Assembly (NCBI GenBank): GCA_037783545.1
Contig: JBBELK010000216.1
Coordinates: 682,001-746,000, forward strand
Source of the DNA: Henricia sp. BOLD:AAB3569
Taxonomy: Eukaryota; Echinodermata; Asteroidea; Spinulosida; Echinasteridae
Reading direction: 5' to 3'
DNA: 64,000 nt
A program made the position numbers and the translations under genes. The notes under the pieces were generated by a model that had not been told where the DNA came from, did no database searches, and saw only the letters and a list, made by a program, of their open reading frames with translations. Position 1 is the stretch's first letter, and each line of letters starts with the position of its first letter. Of the stretch, positions 453 to 16,735 are shown piece after piece.

Positions 453-739
453 GCCAAGTTGTTTTTCACTGCATCCAGATTTCCCAAAACTCATGAACAT
501 CTGTCCACATTTGTATCGAATAAGCTTTACCTTGCACACGACACTGGGCGATGGGTCAGGCTGAGCTTGTTTTGCTTCGGAAGAGCCACCAAATGAGACA
601 ATGGCTAATCTTTTGATGCACACCTAATAACAATACAAAAAAAAACGAAATGTCTTCAGCTTTTAGGTCAAGAAGTCAAACATGTCACCAATGTTTTTCA
701 TGTTGAATGCTCAATCAGGCATACCCGCAGACAACTTAC

Positions 740-3700
740 TTTGATATAAGCCATTTTCAGAGGAGACATCTCAATTTCTACATCATGGTCGCTGTCGATA
801 GAGAAAGCCGCCTGCCTGTAACCAAGCCTGGGTTCCAGCTCTACTCCTTGCTGATTCTGAGACCACCTTAATGTACGAACCACAATGCGATGGAACACAA
901 ACTCTGCCGACGGAAACACAATTTTGTAGCAATGTTAATTTTTCAAAATACATGTGTGCAATGTTTATCACACCAAAAATAGATTTATGCACTAGTATCA
1001 TTATAAAACAACCAGCCTACAAGGCTGATGAAGCCTGCTCCCCCCCCCCCCCCCCCCCCACCCCCCTTAACAATGAATACAGTGACAAACTTAAATAATA
1101 GCTCCTAACCTGGCACAAAATGGTTGAAAGCAATGTAGAAGACGTGAGATGACGCTAAGACCGGTAGAGTATGTTTGGTGACTTGACACTTTCGAACTGC
1201 ACAAGGCATAAAATGTGTCTCTTCTTCAGCAGTAGGTTGTCCACCACCCTGTATGGCTGAAATGAGATGCCTGTCTCACGATACGATACGTATCTCGATA
1301 CTAGTCCGAGTAACTTGGATGCCTACATCGCTTTTTTCATGGGGACGTGGTATGCGATATATGTAGGTATGCCAAGGCAATCGGCCAAAAAAAGCAAAAG
1401 TTTTCACCCCAAAAATGGCGACAAATACACTTGACACGCCAACTGAAGTGCCAGTAGATATCCTAGTTTACCAAGAAAATACATGTACTCACATTCTGAA
1501 AAAAAGTGGCACGCAGCGTACATATTTCGTTCACATTTTGCATGTTTGTGCCCAGCATGCAGTGCGTCCATGTTATCCGACCCCGCCTTGCATATATTAT
1601 ATGGCTGTGTACGAGCGTACAGTTCTCGTTACTCCGGAGTAATGTGCGCGCAATGCACTCAGGTCACATTACGCAAAAAGCAAGTCTGTAGTCTAAAGTA
1701 CATGCTCGAACGCAAGCAATATATTATATGCAAGGCGGTGTCGGATGACATGGACGCACTGCGTGCTGGGCACAAACACGCAAAATGTCAACGATTGCCT
1801 TAGACCCTAAAATACATATATCGCATACCACGTCCCCATGAAAAAAAGCAATATTGTAGGCGTCCAAGTTACTCGGACTATCTCGATACGTGCCAAACGA
1901 TGCGATACGTATCACGATATATCTTGGTTAAAATACTGCAGGTTTTAAAATTAAATTTTCGTAAATAAATGTATCGTGATGCACCGATATATCGATGTAT
2001 CGTTTTAGCCTTACCACCCGGTTTCTGGTCATTCATGTTCATTTTCTGGAAGACAATGACACATAATATTCAGTTTAAAAAGTCATGACCTCAACAGAGA
2101 GAGTATTTTGTAATGCAACTGCAGCACAAAATATCACAATAGTAACTTTGGGTAAATCATAATACACCAAAATTCAATACACTAACTTTCATTGACACAT
2201 TCCTAAATTATGAGATAATTTAAAATGCGTGCCAAATTCGTGTCACGAAATACGCAGCTCCATGCCATTGCTATGGAGCTGCGTATTTCGTGGCACGAAT
2301 TTGGCGTGCGCGCGCATTGCTGACGAGCCTGTGCCTTTAAGTCTGGTTCTGTACTCCTGTCTCCAATTTAACTTGCACATGCTCTATAGACCGAGCTCTC
2401 CACTCCTACATGTTTTAATTTGTCCCCAAATGTCAGTTATATTTGTTCGCGGATACAAATTCTTAAAACATTGTTGATTGATTGATATGGTTTTATACTT
2501 TTAACAAGTTTTAGATGAACATGGACAATTTGATTGATGAATGAAGAACATTTGTGATAAAAGACATTTATTCTTAGTAGCTATAATAATCTTGTGTACG
2601 CACCTCATTAATTGGGCACCGCTTACACAGCAAGTCCCATATATACAAATTTCTCAACAAACATTGCTTCGCATCAGATACATCAATGTTCTGCTCCTCA
2701 TGATTAACCAACAGGTCCCTCCACAAATAGTCAAGAAAACGGTCTTCAAGGATGCCTTCATCTGTCAATCGGTGCCAGGACTTTGAGAGGCCGGAAACCT
2801 GTCAGGGTAAGATTGAATAAAATATAAAATATGTACTGCAATTTGAGTCATTGTTCTCAGAATTCAAGAAACCTGAATTTTAAAAAAATAGGGAGTGTCT
2901 CCCTATTTGGACAAAGTCCCCCTAATACCCCGATTTTACCCCAAAAATGTCTACCGACTACCCCTATTAGTAACATTTTTATAGCGCATTACACATTATT
3001 GATCCCCCAAAAGACAGACAAAAACTATACAATGATGTCGAACAGACCAGCTGCCAACCATCACATTTAGTGGCTATGGTGACTATACCATACCTGTTCC
3101 TTTGGTTCAAGACAAGTCGTGATCCTTCTGATGGCATCAACCAACCAAACGCGATCAATGACAAAGACATTCTCATCTTTGAGAGGGATAACCATGAACC
3201 GACCCGTCCAGGTGTAATAGTTCAGCATCATCCCGGCCTCATTTTCAATCATACCAGTCATGTACCTTTGAATTGCGTCCTAAATAAATGGCAAAACAAA
3301 CGGTACCAAGTCAAATGTTTAACATAACATCTACACTTTGAGATATTACAAACCTTGTTTCCATCGTTCGCTTGACGACATATATTCTCTGTGAAACTAC
3401 AGCAGGAAATTACATACATGTGTTCAGTGTTACAGGATCATAAGTGATTAGTTTTATTATTATTATTATTATTAACAATTAAAAGGAATTGCCGCATGCG
3501 CAAACCGTATGACTCAAATCCACATTCTTCTGCAGTCTGAGGCAAAGATCGCAACCACTCAACCACTGAACTGACCAATCAGCAGTGGGTACCGCATTAA
3601 ACTTACTTTAGCGATAAACACAACGGGAGGACTATAGAGTCTTGTCAGTTCAAACCCCAACCATGTCAGTGGAATCTCTTCTTTCATGTCTGCCACCAAG

Positions 3701-6700
3701 TGTCCAACACCCTCAATCAAACATCTTAAAGCTTTAACCTTCAGATAAAAAAAAAAACGTTAAAGAGACAAACCGGCTTTGTTGGGCTCGAAATAGACCC
3801 ATACCTGATTCTGAAAGTCTTTCCGAAATAGAATGAAAGAACCTGAAAAAAAAACCCACAATTTTACAATTTTTTAGCATTTTTCAAAAAATCAAGGTCA
3901 CGTGATATATCGGAACCAGATTAAGAGTTCGGATAAATCACGTGTCCTTGGAATTAATTTTATTTCCAGCTGCATGGCCGTGTGATAGTTTATTCCTGGA
4001 GTTTATTACTGCAGTACTGCATCAAATTCAGCTCTGATTTTTTTCAAAATATTTATGAGTATTTGACAAAAGAGACTATTTATTAATAGGTTATGAAACA
4101 AAGTTAAACATAACTCTAAAAAATCGAACATAATATTTTGACACAAAGTCCGAGGAACCGAAGCAAGTTCCACTACCAGAAAATGTGACATTTAGCCCCA
4201 CGGCACACACGTTGGGACCGGTACACGCTACAGTGCCGTGGAACTACAATTGTACGTTCGTGAAGACAAACCATAAAAATTGAATGTGAGCTCCTCTACA
4301 GAAAACGGAAAAACCCATTCGGTGGTCCAGGCTGTGCAGTGAAATTTTCAGCAGAAAATTAGAGATATCCAAAGCAAAAAGCTGCTAAGTGAAGAGCGAA
4401 TAGTTTCCGACAAAGTTGTGAGTCTCGCACAATAGTGAAATTGTACTACATTCATCTGAGCGTACACGTATGTCAAAAATTGAAAGGAATTGGCGTATGC
4501 GCAAACCGTGACACAGCCCCTTGTAAAAAGTATGACTTAAATCCACATTCTTCTGCAGTCTAAGGCAAAGATCGCAACCACTCAACCACTTAACTGACCA
4601 TTCAGCAGTGGGTACTGTATTAAACTTACTTTAGCGATAAACACAACGGGAGGACTATAGAGTCTTGTCAGTTCAAACCCCAACCATGTTAGTGGAATCT
4701 CTTCTTTCATGTCTGGCACCGAGCGTCCAACACCCTCAATCGCACGTCTTAAACCTTTAACCTTCAGATAAAAAAAAAAGAACATTAAAGGGGCTCAACG
4801 ATTCAAAACCCTCAAAAACCAAAATGTGCTAATTATGTAACAACTTTTTGCAGGTACCCATTTACTCCTGGGTTTAATAAGAGAGGCAATTTATGGCAAA
4901 GTACCTTAACCAAGAGCATACACATCATAGATGTGGTCTGGATTTGAACCCCAAAACTACAAAATTTAGAATCTTGAGTTTAATACACATGGGGTCGATT
5001 TCACAAAGACTTGCAAGGCGTCACAAGTACCCAATCCATCGCGAGTTGCGATGGATTTGGGTATTTGCGACTTGTTGTCTTTGTGAAATCGACGGACCTC
5101 CGACCCTTGATACTCTTAGATGGCTACTCAGACTTACAGAATACAAGATGACTGCAATGATTTACCTCTGAATCAGCTGCATCTTCTAGGCTATTCTCAA
5201 CAGCAAAGAATTGCTCCACAATGCGATCCTCGTATGGTGTGTCACTCAATGCTTTCCTCAGCTTGGCAAACTGAGAACTAACCTGCCATGCCTGCAGAAG
5301 TAGGAAAGGTAAGCCAAAATAATGGCAACCTATGAGCAGCTGATAAAAGGACTCAATTCTGAATATAATGGGAAAAACTTGGAATTGGGCAATTCCATGG
5401 TTTTTAGTAATGTTACTTTCCGACCTGTTAATCAAGCCGAACCCGCGTGAGTGTGACCATCTATGACCAATCACAACAGAGCTACGCAGACAGCATTAGC
5501 TCTGTTGATCTGGGCCGGTTTGCACATAAAAAAGGTCATACCGAATATTTGATTCGGTAAAATGCTATTCGAACATTCGATGGAAGATTGGTTATTCGAA
5601 TATTCGATTTGTTTGGCACACCGCTAGCTTACACTGGGGAAGTTTGCAGCTACTAAAAAATATTGCAGTGGGAACGCACAGTAAAATAAGATGGAAGAAT
5701 ATTACTGCAGGTTGCTGTACATTGTAAGTTTTCATGGAGTAGCGGAAGAGAAATTCCAATGAGAAAACAGCTTTAAAAAAATATTGTTCACATTTTATGA
5801 ATAAGTATGTCAGAATTAACATGGTCTCTGTAAACAGACGTTAAGATGAACTGCAGTAAGCACCTTACCCTTTCTTCACCATTCTTGCCAAGGCAGTTTT
5901 TGTGAGTGCCAACGATGATGATGGGAGGCCAATCCTTTGCCGGGTAATATGCATGGACATTATGCATCCATTGATCCATGCACTCCCACGTAGTGAGCTC
6001 ATTAGACGAAACTGTTTCCTGGAAATTAAGAACTTGCATATCTTGATGTCTAAAAATGTAATATATTCCCTTTACTTTAAACATTACATACAGCTTGTTG
6101 AATTCTACACATACCAGGCAAAAAAAAATCGTCTTTGTATTCTGATTTTTTTATTTTATTGCATTTTGGGTTGTGAGTTTTGGCAACTTTCAAAATTTAA
6201 TGGACACAATGGAATCTATTTTGCTGTTGTAATTAACATTTACGAAAGCAATTTATAAGGTAAACATCACTCTCAGTAAAAGTTTGACAAAAATCTTTCC
6301 AGACTTTAGGCGACAATATGAATTATAAATGTTACTAATGTGCTTCCTGTGGATATTTACCTTTCCGCGAGGTCCATCAGTTTGAATCACAGCTGGTTTG
6401 TCCAAATCATGGCCAAGATTAAAAACCAAAATGACGATTGGTCTACACGGCATAAACATCTAGAGAAAGAAAATGGAAGCTTTCCTGAATAGTGAATGAC
6501 ACTTTTATAAGTGTTACCATCTTCAAAGATGTACTGTTACAATAGGTTTAAAGGAGCACACCAGCTTTGTTGGGCTATTTTGGGCTTAAAATAAACCCAT
6601 ACATTAATCTGAAAGTCTTTCCGAAATGAACTAAATAGAAAACCATTAAATTTTGCCGTTTTTGAGCATTTAAAAAAAAAAAAATTCAGGGTCACATGAT

Positions 6701-9700
6701 TTATCCGAACCAGATTTCTAGTTTGGATAAATCACGTTTTCTTGTGAGTTAGTTTTGTCAATCGCGGTTGGTTTCATTTCTTGTTGGAAAATAATGTCCT
6801 ACGAAAACTATGTACAGACTGTATTTTCCAATTTGTAGACAAATCTGCCAACAGGTTTCATAAGAAGGGTTTCTGGGTATTGGTATGAATGAGACATTCT
6901 CTCAGATTTTAACAGTTAATGAATCTAAATAAATAAGTAAAATAAATGGGTATGACTGGAAAAAAAGTATTTACAAATTATTAGTTGAGTTTGAAAGAAC
7001 TACATGTAAGTATGAGCATCAAATGAACCCAGGAAAGTTTTTTTGAACCGGTGATAGAGACAGGTGAACTGGCACCTGACACTCGTAACCACTAACCACT
7101 GAATGAAATAATTACCCTATTAGTTGAATGGAACACTTCATCACCTCCAAAGTCTAGCAAACTGAGGAACATTGTATTGCTATCATCAGCACAACTGCTG
7201 TTGACAGCTGACAAAACTTCACGTTTCTTGAAATCTGTGTTTGAGGGAAAAGTATGACATGAAAATCTTACCATGGCATTCTAATGTAAAGAGACATGAA
7301 AAATTATTGAAGGGTTCAGATACGAGTCTGTCCACGGTATTGGAGACATTTGGAAATTAAGATCATATCTCTAAACAATGGCTTTTATCTTCCCTTAAAA
7401 CAAATGACTTCATCCTCGGATCAAACAGCAACAAATAGTGTGACAACATCCCCTTCTAAAAACCATGTGTACAAATTTCCCATATATGGGAAATTTTTAC
7501 ATACAACATACATAACAAGAACACCAAAAATGTCACGACGTATGTGTCCTTTTTATGTACGTTATATTGGAAATTTGCACAGTGTTTTTTCAAACAAATT
7601 GATGGTATGTCATACTATTGGTTACGAAGCACTAAAAGTGCCACCCAACTTGTTCAGAACCTGACAATTTATCGCAGGATGACAACATATTCAGTGCAAA
7701 TTGTTGTCGTCCAGCGATGTATCTCAAGAAGATGACGTAGTAAACAGCTCACCCAAATCATTTTTGTGGCCAGACCAAGATCCCGTTTCATCAATCTGAC
7801 ATGCCATCGAGGCATCAGTCCCTTGTGTTGAGCTCTCTAAGGGGTCAAATCTGTGCATTTTGAAGGGACAGAAATGCAATTACAATGTATTTAAGGCTGT
7901 ATACAGGTTTTGCACCATTTCCCCAAATATCGATCAACCATTTGACTGGAAACCGTACTCAAATGAAAGAGATGATATTTGGAAAATTGGGGGGAAAATG
8001 TGCAACCGATTAGTTGCTGTCGCTCTGCGCACATCGACAGCAACTGTTCAGGGGCCAATTTCGTAAAACATGTTACGTCAAAAATTTTGGATTAAGCATA
8101 GCATGAATTTTTACTTAAGCAAGGGTCTATTTTATGAAGCTTGTTGTTCTAAGCGCGCGAAGAGAGTGCGAGCGCAACGCTGCCGTCTGTTTTGTTCGAA
8201 CGCGTTCGTCGTCTGCTTAACTCGTGTCAACGTCAAAATGTTCAAGTACAGTCATTGGTAATGTTTCCATTTTTGAATGATTATCACTACCACAGAAAAC
8301 CCTTGCCTGTCGCTGACTGAAATATTCAACAACAGCTGAAATTTGTATCTCTGTTGGAAAATGTCTCGAAATTTGCCGAAAATAGCGAAGAAAAAAGATG
8401 GCGTCGCGTTAGCAAAAAGTCGGTAGATTAGCATGCGGTTTGGTTTGCTAGTGCTTAAACAGTTTTATGAAATGGAGAGAGGGCTGCTTAATCATGTTTA
8501 TTAAAATTGGCCCCAGTTGAGTTGCTTCTAGTTGCAAGGTCGATGTACGCTTGGCATTAGAATCTGAGCTAGGATATGACGTCATACCTTTGACCAATGA
8601 GTGTCTTCATTAGGCTAGTCTTGCCAACCCCTGGTTGACCAATCAGCAGCAGATCGATGTGGCCTAGACGTCTACTTCCCTTCATCATTGCCTTCAAGTA
8701 CTGCTGTTGCCAAGACTCTCCTTCCTTTAGGATGCATTGGGGTACAAGGGCTTGGACTTCTGTAAGAGAAAAAAAAGGGTATGAATTTATAAGTTGACCA
8801 TTACTATCTTTTTATGACGACTTACCATCGATTTTGTCTCACATTGTTTGGTTGTTTCATTTTACACCATACAAAATATTGTGTTTGTTACTTTGCCAAG
8901 TTGCGCTCCCTTGCAACACCGAGAGAAAAATTGGGCTGATACGGAAAACCTAAGGGAGTACACCACTGTGCCTCTTAGATCAGCTGGTAGAGCATCTGCC
9001 TGGTGAGTCAGAGGTCTCGGGTTTGAATCCTGATGAGGACCATATGATTTTTCTCTCATCTCGTGTTTGGTGGAGAAAATTACCACGTACAGACACTCTT
9101 TGAGACCCCATGCACTAAACCCAAGTTTTTACCTAGTAAATTCATGACACTTTTTGTCCTAATTTTGCGTTTTTATCATCAAACTAACATTTATATATGG
9201 TTTACATGTCATAACTATGGAGAATCATGGGTGTCCGTGCATGGTAATGAACTTGAAATGTTATTAACAGCTAGTGCAACAGGAGTAATGTTGAAGTTAC
9301 AGCACTCTGAATTCTACATATGATCCGGAATAATTGCGATTGACCCAACTGGTAGTGGGATAACCCAACTTGGAATGGGGTTAACCCAACTGGGGCATTG
9401 TGTCCTCACTCGTTATAATGACGCAATCATAGCCACCAGACAAGTCGACAGCCACCCATACAGGTTCCTTGAAGTCCACTGCCCCACGAGGGTCAAGCAA
9501 CGTCTCTGGTTGTCCCACTTGCTTCATGTTGACGAGGCCCATGGCACCAAACTGGTACTCCACAAACATGTTTTCATCGGTTGTCTGCTTCAGGGGCTCA
9601 GCCCACATACGGCACAGAGCCTCTGGGGTGTAAATAGCAGGTAGGAGACTAGGATCGACTTCATCTGGGTTCTGATTGGTGAAGCCAATTCGTGGAAGGC

Positions 9701-9878
9701 CCGTCCATCGATTTGTTGTTTGCTTAAAGAGCAATGACACCTTCTCATCTGCTTGGCAGGGGGCCTTGCTGAATACGAGAGCATTGTCAAATGTTTCACA
9801 ATTGCGAACAGCAATTGCACCTCCATCTTTCACAGTGATGTTCCTCCCATGACAGGTGGGATGAAAATGCTCATCCAT
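740..9878 (-). CDS. NHR-ROC-COR protein (Neuralized repeat fused to ROCO GTPase), 3' end outside window
   Basis: Exons in transcription order: 9878-9410, 8759-8588, 7850-7753, 7234-7116, 6459-6361, 6018-5869, 5291-5166, 4761-4630 and its duplicate 3738-3607, 3279-3094, 2798-2604, 1248-1110, 903-740. All junctions have GT/AG and compatible phases, giving 683 codons with one copy of the duplicated exon. The start ATG is followed by DEHFHPTCHGRNI, and an in-frame TGA lies eight codons upstream in the same exon. Residues 1-156 are a Neuralized homology repeat (FHPTCHGRNI, ALVFSKAP, IGFTNQNP, WVAVDLSGG). A ROC GTPase follows: P-loop GQPGVGKTS near 197-205, switch DFGGDEVFHS near 274, G4-like VGTHKN near 356. 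The COR part has EIPLTWLGFEL, CPINE and HRIVVRTLRW. ROCO proteins are GTPases with scaffold or signalling roles; NHR domains bind proteins and occur in Neuralized ubiquitin ligases. No stop is seen at 740, so more exons lie to the left. Function unknown. Confidence 0.85.
1040..1059 (+). repeat. Poly-C tract
   Basis: A run of about 20 C followed by A and another C run, in an intron of the NHR-ROC-COR gene. Confidence 0.9.
1283..1925. repeat. Long foldback (MITE-like) element
   Basis: The left part (GTCCGAGTAACTTGGATGCC, GGGGACGTGGTATGCGATAT) is mirrored on the right as ATATCGCATACCACGTCCCC and GGCGTCCAAGTTACTCGGAC. Inner arms also match (TGTGCCCAGCATGCAGTGCG against CGCACTGCGTGCTGGGCACA). Arms are roughly 250-300 bp with small interruptions around a centre near 1640. 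It encodes no evident protein and lies in an intron. Confidence 0.8.
2226..2335. repeat. Inverted-repeat MITE, family also at 10978-11118
   Basis: A hairpin is formed by CGAAATACGCAGCTCCATGC and its complement around 2232-2305, ending in GGCGTGCGCGCGCATTGCTG. A diverged copy with the same CACGAATTTGGCGCGCGCGC end occurs near 11080. Confidence 0.7.
3455..3473 (+). repeat. (TTA)n microsatellite
   Basis: About six TTA/ATT units immediately before the left copy of the duplicated exon segment. Confidence 0.85.
3480..3765. repeat. Direct repeat, left copy, of the exon-carrying duplication
   Basis: It shares AAAAGGAATT, GCGCAAACCGT, CCACATTCTTCTGCAGTCT and CAACCACTCAACCACT, as well as the whole 132-nt exon, with 4478-4790. 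The offset between the exons is 1023 bp. The duplication therefore includes about 130 bp of downstream intron. Confidence 0.85.
3607..3738 (-). CDS. COR-domain exon, copy 2 (3' copy) of the tandem exon pair
   Basis: This is a 132-nt duplicate of the exon at 4630-4761 with the same CTGAAG acceptor and GTAAGT donor, both phase 0. It begins VKALRCLIEGVGHLVADMKE. I count 8 base differences from copy 1: seven cause six amino-acid changes, all within the first 16 residues, and one is silent. The last 28 residues are identical. The reading frame is intact, so it looks functional. It may be an alternative (mutually exclusive) exon or be included in tandem. Confidence 0.8.
3780..3960. repeat. Dispersed repeat, second copy near 6550-6765
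   Basis: Both stretches contain GGCTTTGTTGGGCT or a close variant, then TCTGAAAGTCTTTCCGAAAT and GGATAAATCACGT. They lie in introns of the NHR-ROC-COR gene. No coding potential is seen. Confidence 0.65.
4478..4790. repeat. Direct repeat, right copy, of the exon-carrying duplication
   Basis: This is the partner of 3480-3765. It carries an extra stretch of about 22 bp (around GACACAGCCCCTTGTAAAAA) in the intronic part that the left copy lacks. Confidence 0.85.
4630..4761 (-). CDS. COR-domain exon, copy 1 (5' copy) of a tandem exon pair
   Basis: This 132-nt exon encodes 44 residues, starting VKGLRRAIEGVGRSVPDMKE and ending SPPVVFIAK. The acceptor ends in CTGAAG and the donor is GTAAGT. It starts and ends in phase 0, so it can be skipped, swapped or doubled without changing frame. 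It belongs to the NHR-ROC-COR gene and encodes the start of the COR region (EIPLTWLGFEL). Flanking intron sequence is duplicated together with the exon. Confidence 0.85.
4990..5098. repeat. Short palindromic MITE
   Basis: GGTCGATTTCACAAAGAC at the left is mirrored by TCTTTGTGAAATCGACGGAC at the right, with an inner mirrored pair CCAATCCATCGC and GCGATGGATTTGG. Confidence 0.75.
6550..6765. repeat. Dispersed repeat, copy of 3780-3960
   Basis: It shares the TCTGAAAGTCTTTCCGAAAT core and the GGATAAATCACGT end with the copy at 3780-3960. It is intronic. Confidence 0.65.
8050..8515. repeat. MITE with GGGGCCAATTT termini
   Basis: The left end GGGGCCAATTTCGTAAAACA and right end ATTAAAATTGGCCCC are inverted repeats. 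Related elements occur at 18239-18393, 19366-19587 and 56130-56385. It lies in the intron between the first NHR-ROC-COR P-loop exon and the next exon. Confidence 0.65.
8968..9040 (+). repeat. tRNA-derived SINE head
   Basis: A-box-like TCAGCTGGTAGAGCATCTG and B-box-like GGGTTTGAATCCTGA. The preceding GGGAGTACACCACTGTGCCT recurs at the SINE heads at 16545-16735 and 44495-44600. Confidence 0.65.
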
Positions 9879-10221
9879 CTTCTCAATCTCATGCAGCCTT
9901 CAAGTTCCTAAAAACAGTACCTGTGATGAAAATGTAAATATTTTAGACAGCATAGTGTTTATTTTTTTTGATTTAGATTTATGCATGCAAGATGTTGCTG
10001 AGACAACATTATTATGAATAAAACATCTTTTCCTTAATAAAAATTTTTTATCTTTGAAACATTTTTTCTTTAGTAAAGATGTTTTAAGACTGAATTTTCT
10101 GAATGGTTTCCATGACAATGCCTAACCTAAACAACAAACAATTATTTAAAACATCACACATAATGATTTACTAAAACAAAATAAGACTTGAAAGATAGCT
10201 CCAGGATGATACTAGCCTTTG

Positions 10222-15436: not shown

Positions 15437-16544
15437 AAAAGTCCCTAATATAGGATTTTTATCACATTATTGACTAAGAGGAACCATGGAGGAAGTTTTC
15501 TTCCTCCATGGAGGAACTAACTATGAAAACATAATTTATAACCACTTTGAAAGGTTCGATTACACATTTTGGGTTTGCATGCTAATGTTAATTTCCATAT
15601 TAATGAGCAAAATTATGATGTCACATTAGGCAAATTCCACTTGTTTATGCACCATAAATATTTCTTCTGTTTTTGAAAGTTTTTTTACCCTTTGTTGTTT
15701 TCTTTGCATTAAAAATTCCTGTTCCTAGTCAAGAAGAAGAAAAAAATTTAATTGTTGACCACAATTCCAGTTGGAATTCTTTTTTTTTCTTACTTTTAAC
15801 TGGTGAGTTCCTAAAGCAAACACAAACAGCGCCATCTCTTGGCAAACATATTGGAAAATTAAAAAGAGCCACTGATTTCTTTTTATTTTCAAACCCAAAC
15901 TAACATGCATTGTCTTGTTAGTATAATGTATCTATATTCCTACATTGCAAAGAATGATCCTGGATTGACTGACATACCGAACATTTTAGGGGCCCTTTAA
16001 ACGTTGCTTATTCTGAGCAAAAGTTGCATCTAAACTTCAGGCTTTATGTTGGGGGCGCAGTAAGGGCTATCCTCAGTAGTCATGATGGTGTAGATCCCGT
16101 ACGCACTGGAAGGTGTCTGGTCAGCATTGTAACCCATCTTAACATTGCTGACCCCGGCGTGACCTTTGTAGGTGCAGCCTTGACCTTGACCCCAGGTCCA
16201 GAAGCAGGGATAGGCCAATGCGGAGCAGTCATTGTTGATGCTGGCTGTGTACAGCTTGTGGGAACGACTGTGGGCGCAGTCGTCTCCCACAAAGTACCAA
16301 CATCCAGGTTGGTGATTGCCAGAGTTTGCGTAGATGTCAACATGGCCCACCTGAAACCACAGAATGGCAGGGGGGAAAAAATCAGAAGTAGCTTTAAATT
16401 GACTTAAATCTTTAGAGAGTTTCTTCTTGTGATTCTCCCCCGTTACTTTCATTTCCCTTTTCTTATCTCAATTCGTTCTCATTTCAAACACTGAGAGAAA
16501 AAGTGGGTTCTTAGGAAAAACCCGAGGGAGCTATGTCACTGTAC

Positions 16545-16735
16545 CTCATAAGTCAGCTGGTAGAACATCTGTCAGTTGTGTCAGAGGTCTTGGGGAAACC
16601 TAAGGCAGTATACCACTGTGCCTCGTAGCTCAGCTGGCAGAGCATCTGCCCGGTTTATCAGAAATCTCGGGAAAAGCCTGAGGGAGTATACCACTGTGCC
16701 CCATTGGTCAGCCGGTAGAGCATCTGCCTGGTGAC
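16545..16735 (+). repeat. Three tandem tRNA-like SINE heads
   Basis: Three consecutive units begin with variants of GAGGGAGTATACCACTGTGCC followed by A-box-like TCAGCTGGTAGAGCATCTG. None of the three has a clear B box. They lie between the last two exons of the truncated lipase copy. Confidence 0.7.

What the first reader, a model, noticed from the sequence alone, without database searches (positions are those of the whole stretch)
3480..4790. Tandem duplicated, frame-neutral exon in the COR region with clustered replacement changes
Two 132-nt exons (3607-3738 and 4630-4761) with identical splice-site contexts start and end in phase 0. Their flanking introns are duplicated too. I count 8 differences: 7 alter amino acids (6 residues) and 1 is silent, and all replacements fall in the first 16 of 44 residues. 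The rest is identical. This is the layout of mutually exclusive alternative exons, giving two versions of the segment at the ROC-COR junction. Alternatively both are included, lengthening the linker by 44 residues, or one is a recent redundant copy.
Basis: partly seen in the sequence, partly recalled or inferred. Interest (0 to 1): 0.75.

Follow-up and report, generated by a model that had tools for sequence, protein, structure and literature searches.

The report
Young duplicated exon in Roco gene
An animal gene for a Roc GTPase carries the same small exon twice in a row on both parental chromosome copies, and the two versions differ consistently only in four amino acids at the hinge of the switch; this could be a newborn pair of alternative exons, or just a spare copy starting to drift, and only RNA data can tell.

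Summary
Two 132-nt, phase-0 exons (B 4761-4630, A 3738-3607, minus strand) differ at 8 bases, 7 of them replacements. They lie in one open Roc gene and encode the last Roc helix and the start of the presumed COR. The assembly also holds the other haplotype (contig C204, collinear at four points over 600 kb), which carries the same pair. So this is no artefact, and the duplication predates the two haplotypes. Five bases separate A from B on both haplotypes. All five are replacements (R6C, A7L, S14L, P16A) within 31 nt; none is silent, and none of 45 comparable downstream intron sites separates them. That clustering exceeds neutral simulation (P 0.0004-0.006), but three of the five are CpG losses in A, and five replacements of five is unremarkable within the exon (P 0.16-0.26). 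Splice signals are intact in all four copies; no device enforcing either-or splicing was found among those checked. Double inclusion would repeat the Roc helix inside the presumed COR. I favour one copy per mRNA, B ancestral and A derived (0.4), over a drifting spare copy (0.33) or double inclusion (0.2). A new member of a known kind.

The parts
4630..4761 (-). Exon copy B (5' copy, probably ancestral): VKGLRRAIEGVGRSVPDMKEEIPLTWLGFELTRLYSPPVVFIAK
   Evidence: present as B' on C204:1578249-1578380
3607..3738 (-). Exon copy A (3' copy, probably derived): VKALRCLIEGVGHLVADMKEEIPLTWLGFELTRLYSPPVVFIAK
   Evidence: present as A' on C204:1578851-1578982
4306..4790 (-). Duplicated unit around B (about 29 nt before the exon, the exon, about 324 nt of downstream intron)
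   Evidence: matches C204 1579299-1578823, the surroundings of A', at 91% over 486 nt
3474..3765 (-). What remains of the duplicated unit around A; its distal part is replaced by an (ATA)n stretch in this haplotype
3775..3961 (-). Repeat element ending just upstream of the branch-point region of A; another copy at 6573-6756; in C204 a further copy follows the A' unit
   Evidence: 74% match; C204 copies
5166..5291 (-). Exon before the pair (phase 0 at both ends), donor gag|gtaaat
3094..3279 (-). Exon after the pair (phase 0 at both ends)
531..8759 (-). Portion of the Roc gene read here, 14 exons (8759-8588, 7850-7753, 7234-7116, 6459-6361, 6018-5869, 5291-5166, B, A, 3279-3094, 2798-2604, 2045-2016, 1248-1110, 903-740, 623-531), open in frame; the gene's true ends were not determined
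   Evidence: Roc PF08477 E 2.7e-13; gene model; the 12 exons other than A and B are open on both haplotypes, 523 codons

Best explanation
A segment of about 486 nt holding one exon of a Roc (Roco-type) GTPase gene was duplicated in tandem before the two haplotypes of this animal separated. The protein has room for one copy: the exon supplies the last helix of the Roc GTPase fold and the link into the presumed COR region. Most likely the two exons are used as alternatives, one per mRNA. The 5' copy (B) keeps the ancestral version. The 3' copy (A) supplies a variant in which four residues of the helix and link are changed (R6C, A7L, S14L, P16A), while the last 28 residues are the same in all four copies. 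The two proteins would differ in how the GTPase part talks to the COR part. Shown: the duplication, its presence on both haplotypes, intact frames and splice signals, the all-replacement cluster. Inferred: B ancestral, one copy per mRNA, functional difference.
For: Both copies are on both haplotypes. C204 is the other haplotype, not a local paralogue: C216 at about 400, 687, 880 and 1000 kb matches C204 at about 1875, 1578, 1380 and 1218 kb in steady inverted order. Differences shared by both haplotypes between A and B: 5 of 5 are replacements within exon bases 16-46; 0 fixed among 45 downstream intron sites and 0 fixed silent ones (about 31 silent sites). Neutral simulation (B-like ancestor, transition factor 2) of 5 changes all replacing and within 31 nt: P 0.002-0.006 in the exon, 0.0004-0.001 in exon plus 45 intron nt, for CpG factors 1 to 20. 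5:0 fixed versus 9:12 replacement:silent haplotype differences in the other exons, Fisher P 0.04. The gene is constrained: pN 0.7%, pS 3.6% between haplotypes in 523 codons. A branch-point-like ctttaac/ctttaat (consensus recalled), T-tract, AG and gtaagt are kept in all four copies. With either single copy, hhalign carries a bacterial Roco profile through Roc and COR (267 columns); with both, it stops in Roc (135 columns).
Against: No transcript evidence. Two strong, identical donors with a 470-891 nt intron between the copies would by default be joined in series; no steric, U12 or either-or RNA-pairing device was found. Five replacements of five is not unusual under neutrality within the exon (P 0.16-0.19; 0.26 by site fraction), and 5:0 against the pair's own private changes (3:2) is not significant (P 0.44). 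Three of the five changes are CpG losses; the two in codon 7 may be one event, so perhaps four or fewer independent events; the tests were made after seeing the cluster. R to C and S to L are not conservative, whereas PMC9741552 finds changes in human pairs mostly conservative, disputing an earlier study it cites (passages). The hhalign score is the same (about 94) for one and two copies, so the COR part adds almost nothing to it, and the COR part alone is not significant.
Confidence: 0.4

Rival explanations
1. A is a spare copy under relaxed constraint. B is the constitutive exon; A is mostly skipped or included in minor transcripts and is drifting, largely by decay of methylated CpG.
For: All four CpGs in the first 48 nt of B are TG or CA in A; three of the four also in A', which in addition has lost one CpG in the last 84 nt by a silent change. 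Exons of this gene are CpG-poor (o/e 0.53 versus 0.85 in its introns), as expected if gene bodies are methylated (inference). Whole-exon replacement divergence A-B (7 of about 102 sites) is like that of the neighbouring intron (6 of 98). PMC9741552 says tandem duplication is common but mutually exclusive splicing of the copies is not (introduction). Zero replacements in the last 84 nt on the A branch is only weakly unexpected under neutrality (about 2.6 expected, P about 0.08; my arithmetic).
Against: Under CpG hypermutability the tight replacement-only cluster still has P 0.006 or less. A's frame and splice signals are intact on both haplotypes.
Confidence: 0.33
2. Both copies are normally included, giving a protein longer by 44 residues.
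For: 132 nt is a multiple of three; both exons have equally good splice signals and long introns on either side, so serial inclusion is the default expectation.
Against: It would place a second Roc end-helix inside the presumed COR region; the profile alignment then breaks off in Roc, though without loss of score. The other exons are under constraint, so a disruptive default would hardly be carried on both haplotypes.
Confidence: 0.2
3. The pattern reflects conversion between copies: the 3' part of the exon and the intron are homogenised and only the 5' end escapes.
For: 0 shared differences in the last 84 nt and the next 45 intron nt.
Against: Silent and intronic differences do exist there but are private to single copies, at about the level seen between haplotypes, so no copying tract is needed. 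No other donor was seen: 4 matches, in 2 loci, in the genome.
Confidence: 0.05
4. Assembly artefact (two alleles laid end to end).
For: The assembly does keep both haplotypes and holds redundant pieces.
Against: The same ordered pair, with the same five differences and the same repeat element before A, is on both haplotypes in separate megabase contigs, with different spacing (602 versus 1023 nt).
Confidence: 0.02

Closest known systems
Mutually exclusive tandem-duplicated exons of animals (the human events of PMC9741552; Dscam arrays in PMC3236188)
   Same: Adjacent, homologous, frame-neutral exons with the same phase and complete splice signals, encoding alternative versions of one protein segment.
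   Different: Very young (6% apart), some changes not conservative, splicing pattern unknown, no competing RNA structure that would choose between the copies found.
Tandem exon duplications in general (PMC9013439, first part read)
   Same: Duplicated exon next to its parent with intact splice sites; such events are described there as abundant.
   Different: Here two haplotypes show that the duplication is shared and that the shared A/B differences are replacements only.
ROCO genes of brown algae with shuffled and alternatively spliced LRR exons (PMC11378527, abstract only)
   Same: Exon duplication and alternative splicing in a Roco gene.
   Different: There the repeated exons are LRRs; here it is the Roc end-helix and the link to COR, in a gene with a Neuralized exon upstream on the same strand.

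Membership tests
Mutually exclusive exons | Homologous adjacent exons, same phase, complete splice signals | tested here: met
Mutually exclusive exons | One and only one copy in each mature mRNA | not testable with these tools
   no RNA data held
Mutually exclusive exons | A device preventing joint inclusion (short intron, U2/U12 mismatch, docking-selector pairing, or a frameshift that removes double products) | tested here: inconclusive
   Intron between the copies 891 nt (470 on C204), both exons GT-AG with U2-type signals, 132 nt keeps the frame. Intron helices: 4 of 6 comparisons within the shuffled range; the two outermost introns (before B, after A) reached the maximum of 20 mononucleotide shuffles on both haplotypes, but pairing across both exons would loop out both. 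Regulatory proteins not tested.
Mutually exclusive exons | Copies conserved through species divergence | not testable with these tools
   no related animal genome held; only the second haplotype was available
Roco (Roc-COR) proteins | Roc GTPase domain | tested here: met
   PF08477 50.6 bits over cut-off 27; best PDB hits are Roco proteins 4wnr and 3dpu (the name Roco for these entries is recalled)
Roco (Roc-COR) proteins | COR domain directly after Roc | tested here: inconclusive
   No Pfam match; in register in hhalign with Roc attached, not significant alone (B form E 0.1 in register; A form picks another place)

The most novel reading that the evidence does not exclude
A newborn pair of mutually exclusive exons caught while selection is separating the copies: between duplication and the split of two haplotypes, only amino-acid changes were fixed, all in the GTPase end-helix and its link to COR, giving one gene two differently geared switches.
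Probability: 0.25. Interest if true: 0.6.

Novelty: new member of a known kind. Interest (0 to 1): 0.33.

Why it matters
Most known alternative duplicated exons are ancient (PMC9741552), so their first steps are unseen. A pair young enough that silent sites have not yet separated, present on both haplotypes of a highly polymorphic animal, would let one ask with population data and RNA reads whether either-or splicing or protein divergence comes first. The segment concerned joins the GTPase to COR; in the bacterial relative CtRoco the first part of CORA shifts on GTP binding, and an activating nanobody touches the Roc-CORA connection (PMC11052575, passages).

Tried and rejected
Docking-selector RNA pairing between the three introns: counts of helices of 11 bp or more (at least 3 GC) in six comparisons were 2, 4, 1 (window) and 1, 5, 3 (C204) against means of 20 mononucleotide shuffles of 2.75, 1.0, 3.05 and 1.05, 2.65, 2.8. 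The comparison of the intron before B with the intron after A reached the shuffle maximum on both haplotypes (4 and 5), and two of its helices recur on both; but such pairing spans both exons and would not choose between them. Pfam search of the COR part: nothing. PDB search with the COR part: one weak hit to another protein. Viral contigs: no relative. A paralogue as outgroup: none seen; the genome search with a 148-aa query gave 8 exon matches, all at the two haplotype loci. Polarity from bacterial Roco: position 16 is P in 6 of the 8 bacterial sequences read at that place, A in one, K in one (L005 gave a wrong frame and was left out), so P as ancestral is favoured, not proven. Only 6 of those 8 went into the profile A2. 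I first treated C204 as a possible paralogue; collinearity at four points over 600 kb settled it. The taxon was not identified and the copy number of the repeat was not obtained.
Full report
WHAT IS THERE. The minus strand of window 8759-531 reads as a continuous set of exons for a Roc GTPase gene. Pfam Roc matches at E 2.7e-13 and the best solved relatives by sequence are 4wnr and 3dpu, Roco proteins by recall. In it, two 132-nt exons lie in series: B at 4761-4630 and A at 3738-3607. Both begin and end in phase 0, both have a T-rich acceptor and the donor AAA|gtaagt, and they differ at 8 bases, 7 of them replacing. The neighbouring exons 5291-5166 and 3279-3094 are also phase 0 at both ends, so B alone, A alone, both or neither all keep the frame.

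WHAT THE EXON ENCODES. A profile of six bacterial Roco proteins (A2, from L001, L002, L003, L006, L007, L008) aligns with the one-copy protein from the start of Roc to beyond the exon (hhalign E 5.8e-13, 267 columns). In that register the exon spans the last Roc helix and the link into COR. That these elements are helix and link is recalled knowledge of Ras-like folds, not a structure examined here. The COR assignment is weak: no Pfam match in that part, and the COR part alone reaches only E 0.1 in the right register with B and no right register with A. With both copies in series the alignment stops within Roc (135 columns), although the score (about 94) hardly changes between the three forms.

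THE SECOND HAPLOTYPE. The window's genome is held (740.7 Mb, 2104 contigs; window is C216:682001-746000). The exon has 4 matches in it: the two in the window and two on C204. C204 is collinear with the window over the gene and its flanks, most blocks at 84-98% identity. More distant points of C216, near 400, 880 and 1000 kb, match C204 near 1875, 1380 and 1218 kb in inverted order. I conclude that C204 is the other haplotype. A 148-residue query found 8 exon matches, all in these two loci. So the gene is single copy at that sensitivity and the pair is present on both haplotypes.

SHARED AND PRIVATE DIFFERENCES. Ten exon sites vary among A, A', B and B'. Five separate A-type from B-type on both haplotypes: bases 16 (R6C), 19 and 20 (A7L), 41 (S14L) and 46 (P16A). 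Five are private to one copy: codon 3 (B), codon 10 (B'), codon 13 (A), silent codon 24 (B), silent codon 38 (A'). Of 45 downstream intron sites comparable in all four copies, 7 vary and none separates A-type from B-type. Between haplotypes the other 12 exons (523 codons) differ by 9 replacements and 12 silent changes, pN 0.7% and pS 3.6%. A and B therefore differ no more at silent sites than two alleles do, yet share five replacement differences.

IS THE CLUSTER MORE THAN CHANCE? In neutral simulations of five changes (B-like ancestor, transition factor 2), all replacing and within 31 nt occurs with P 0.002-0.006 in the exon and 0.0004-0.001 when the 45 intron sites are included, for CpG factors from 1 to 20. 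All replacing, alone, has P 0.16-0.19 in the exon and 0.03-0.04 with the intron sites. Against the haplotype differences of the other exons, 5:0 versus 9:12 gives Fisher P 0.04; against the pair's own private changes, 5:0 versus 3:2, P 0.44. An earlier simulation of all eight window differences, before the second haplotype was known, gave P 0.001-0.02 for seven or more in the first 48 nt. These tests were made after seeing the cluster, and neighbouring changes may not be independent.

THE MUTATIONAL INGREDIENT. All four CpGs in the first 48 nt of B read TG or CA in A; the two CpGs in the last 84 nt are kept in A and B. A' has lost three of the four and one of the two. Three of the five shared changes (bases 16, 20, 41) and the private codon-13 change are CpG losses if B is ancestral. 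In the aligned intron flanks two CpGs of A are TG or CA in B, so decay is not confined to A overall. CpG o/e is 0.53 in the gene's exons, 0.85 in its introns and 0.72 in the window. CpG decay thus explains much of the kind of change, less well its confinement to 31 nt.

HOW THE DUPLICATION LOOKS. The duplicated unit is about 486 nt (window 4306-4790 versus C204 1578823-1579299): about 29 nt before the exon, the exon and about 324 nt after it. It includes a branch-point-like ctttaac or ctttaat (consensus recalled) 20-odd nt before each acceptor. A repeat element (window 3775-3961, relative at 6573-6756) ends just before the unit on the A side on both haplotypes, and another copy follows the A' unit on C204. 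A role of these elements in the duplication is possible and untested. Later changes shortened the unit after A in the window and after B' in C204.

HOW IT MOST LIKELY WORKS. One slot, two versions: the gene is under constraint and both haplotypes carry the pair, so splicing must usually yield a workable protein. Double inclusion would place a second end-helix inside the presumed COR region. I therefore favour one copy per mRNA, B ancestral and A a variant of the helix and link. I put this at 0.4, because the drifting spare copy explains nearly as much (0.33) and serial inclusion (0.2) is the default expectation from the splice sites. No enforcing device was found among those checked; intron pairing was highest between the outermost introns on both haplotypes, which would not choose between the copies. 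In CtRoco a nanobody loop contacts the Roc-CORA connection, and the first part of CORA shifts on GTP binding (PMC11052575, passages only); that makes a functional difference plausible, not shown.

KNOWN OR NEW. Tandem exon duplications are common, and either-or splicing of the copies is rarer and mostly ancient (PMC9013439 first part; PMC9741552 first part and passages). In Dscam no positive selection between paralogous exons was found, with low power (PMC3236188, abstract). Brown-algal ROCO genes shuffle and alternatively splice LRR exons (PMC11378527, abstract). In my searches (listings only) I saw no report of a duplicated Roc-COR junction exon; those searches are narrow. This is a new, young member of a known kind.

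Noticed in passing
9381-9899, minus strand: Neuralized domain (PF07177, E 4.1e-21) upstream of the Roc exons on the same strand; it may be the 5' part of the same gene or a separate neighbour.
   Followed up: partly
4994-5093: Imperfect palindrome of about 100 nt (79%) in the intron before B, perhaps a small inverted-repeat element.
   Followed up: no
8915-9021 and 16487-16594: Repeat pair at 79% identity that by eye looks tRNA-like; ARAGORN found no tRNA gene in the window. Possibly a SINE.
   Followed up: no
L031 (C216:400001-404000): A 4-kb stretch matches C105:43561-47565 at 100% besides its 88-94% blocks on C204, so the assembly also holds redundant pieces.
   Followed up: no
1527-1794: Self-complementary element of about 270 nt (76%) in the intron after the exon 2045-2016.
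   Followed up: no
5158, 5009 against 3558, 3397 (minus strand): Two short complementary stretches between the intron before B and the intron after A recur on both haplotypes; the count for this intron pair equals the shuffle maximum on both. Possibly chance, possibly a loop spanning both exons.
   Followed up: partly
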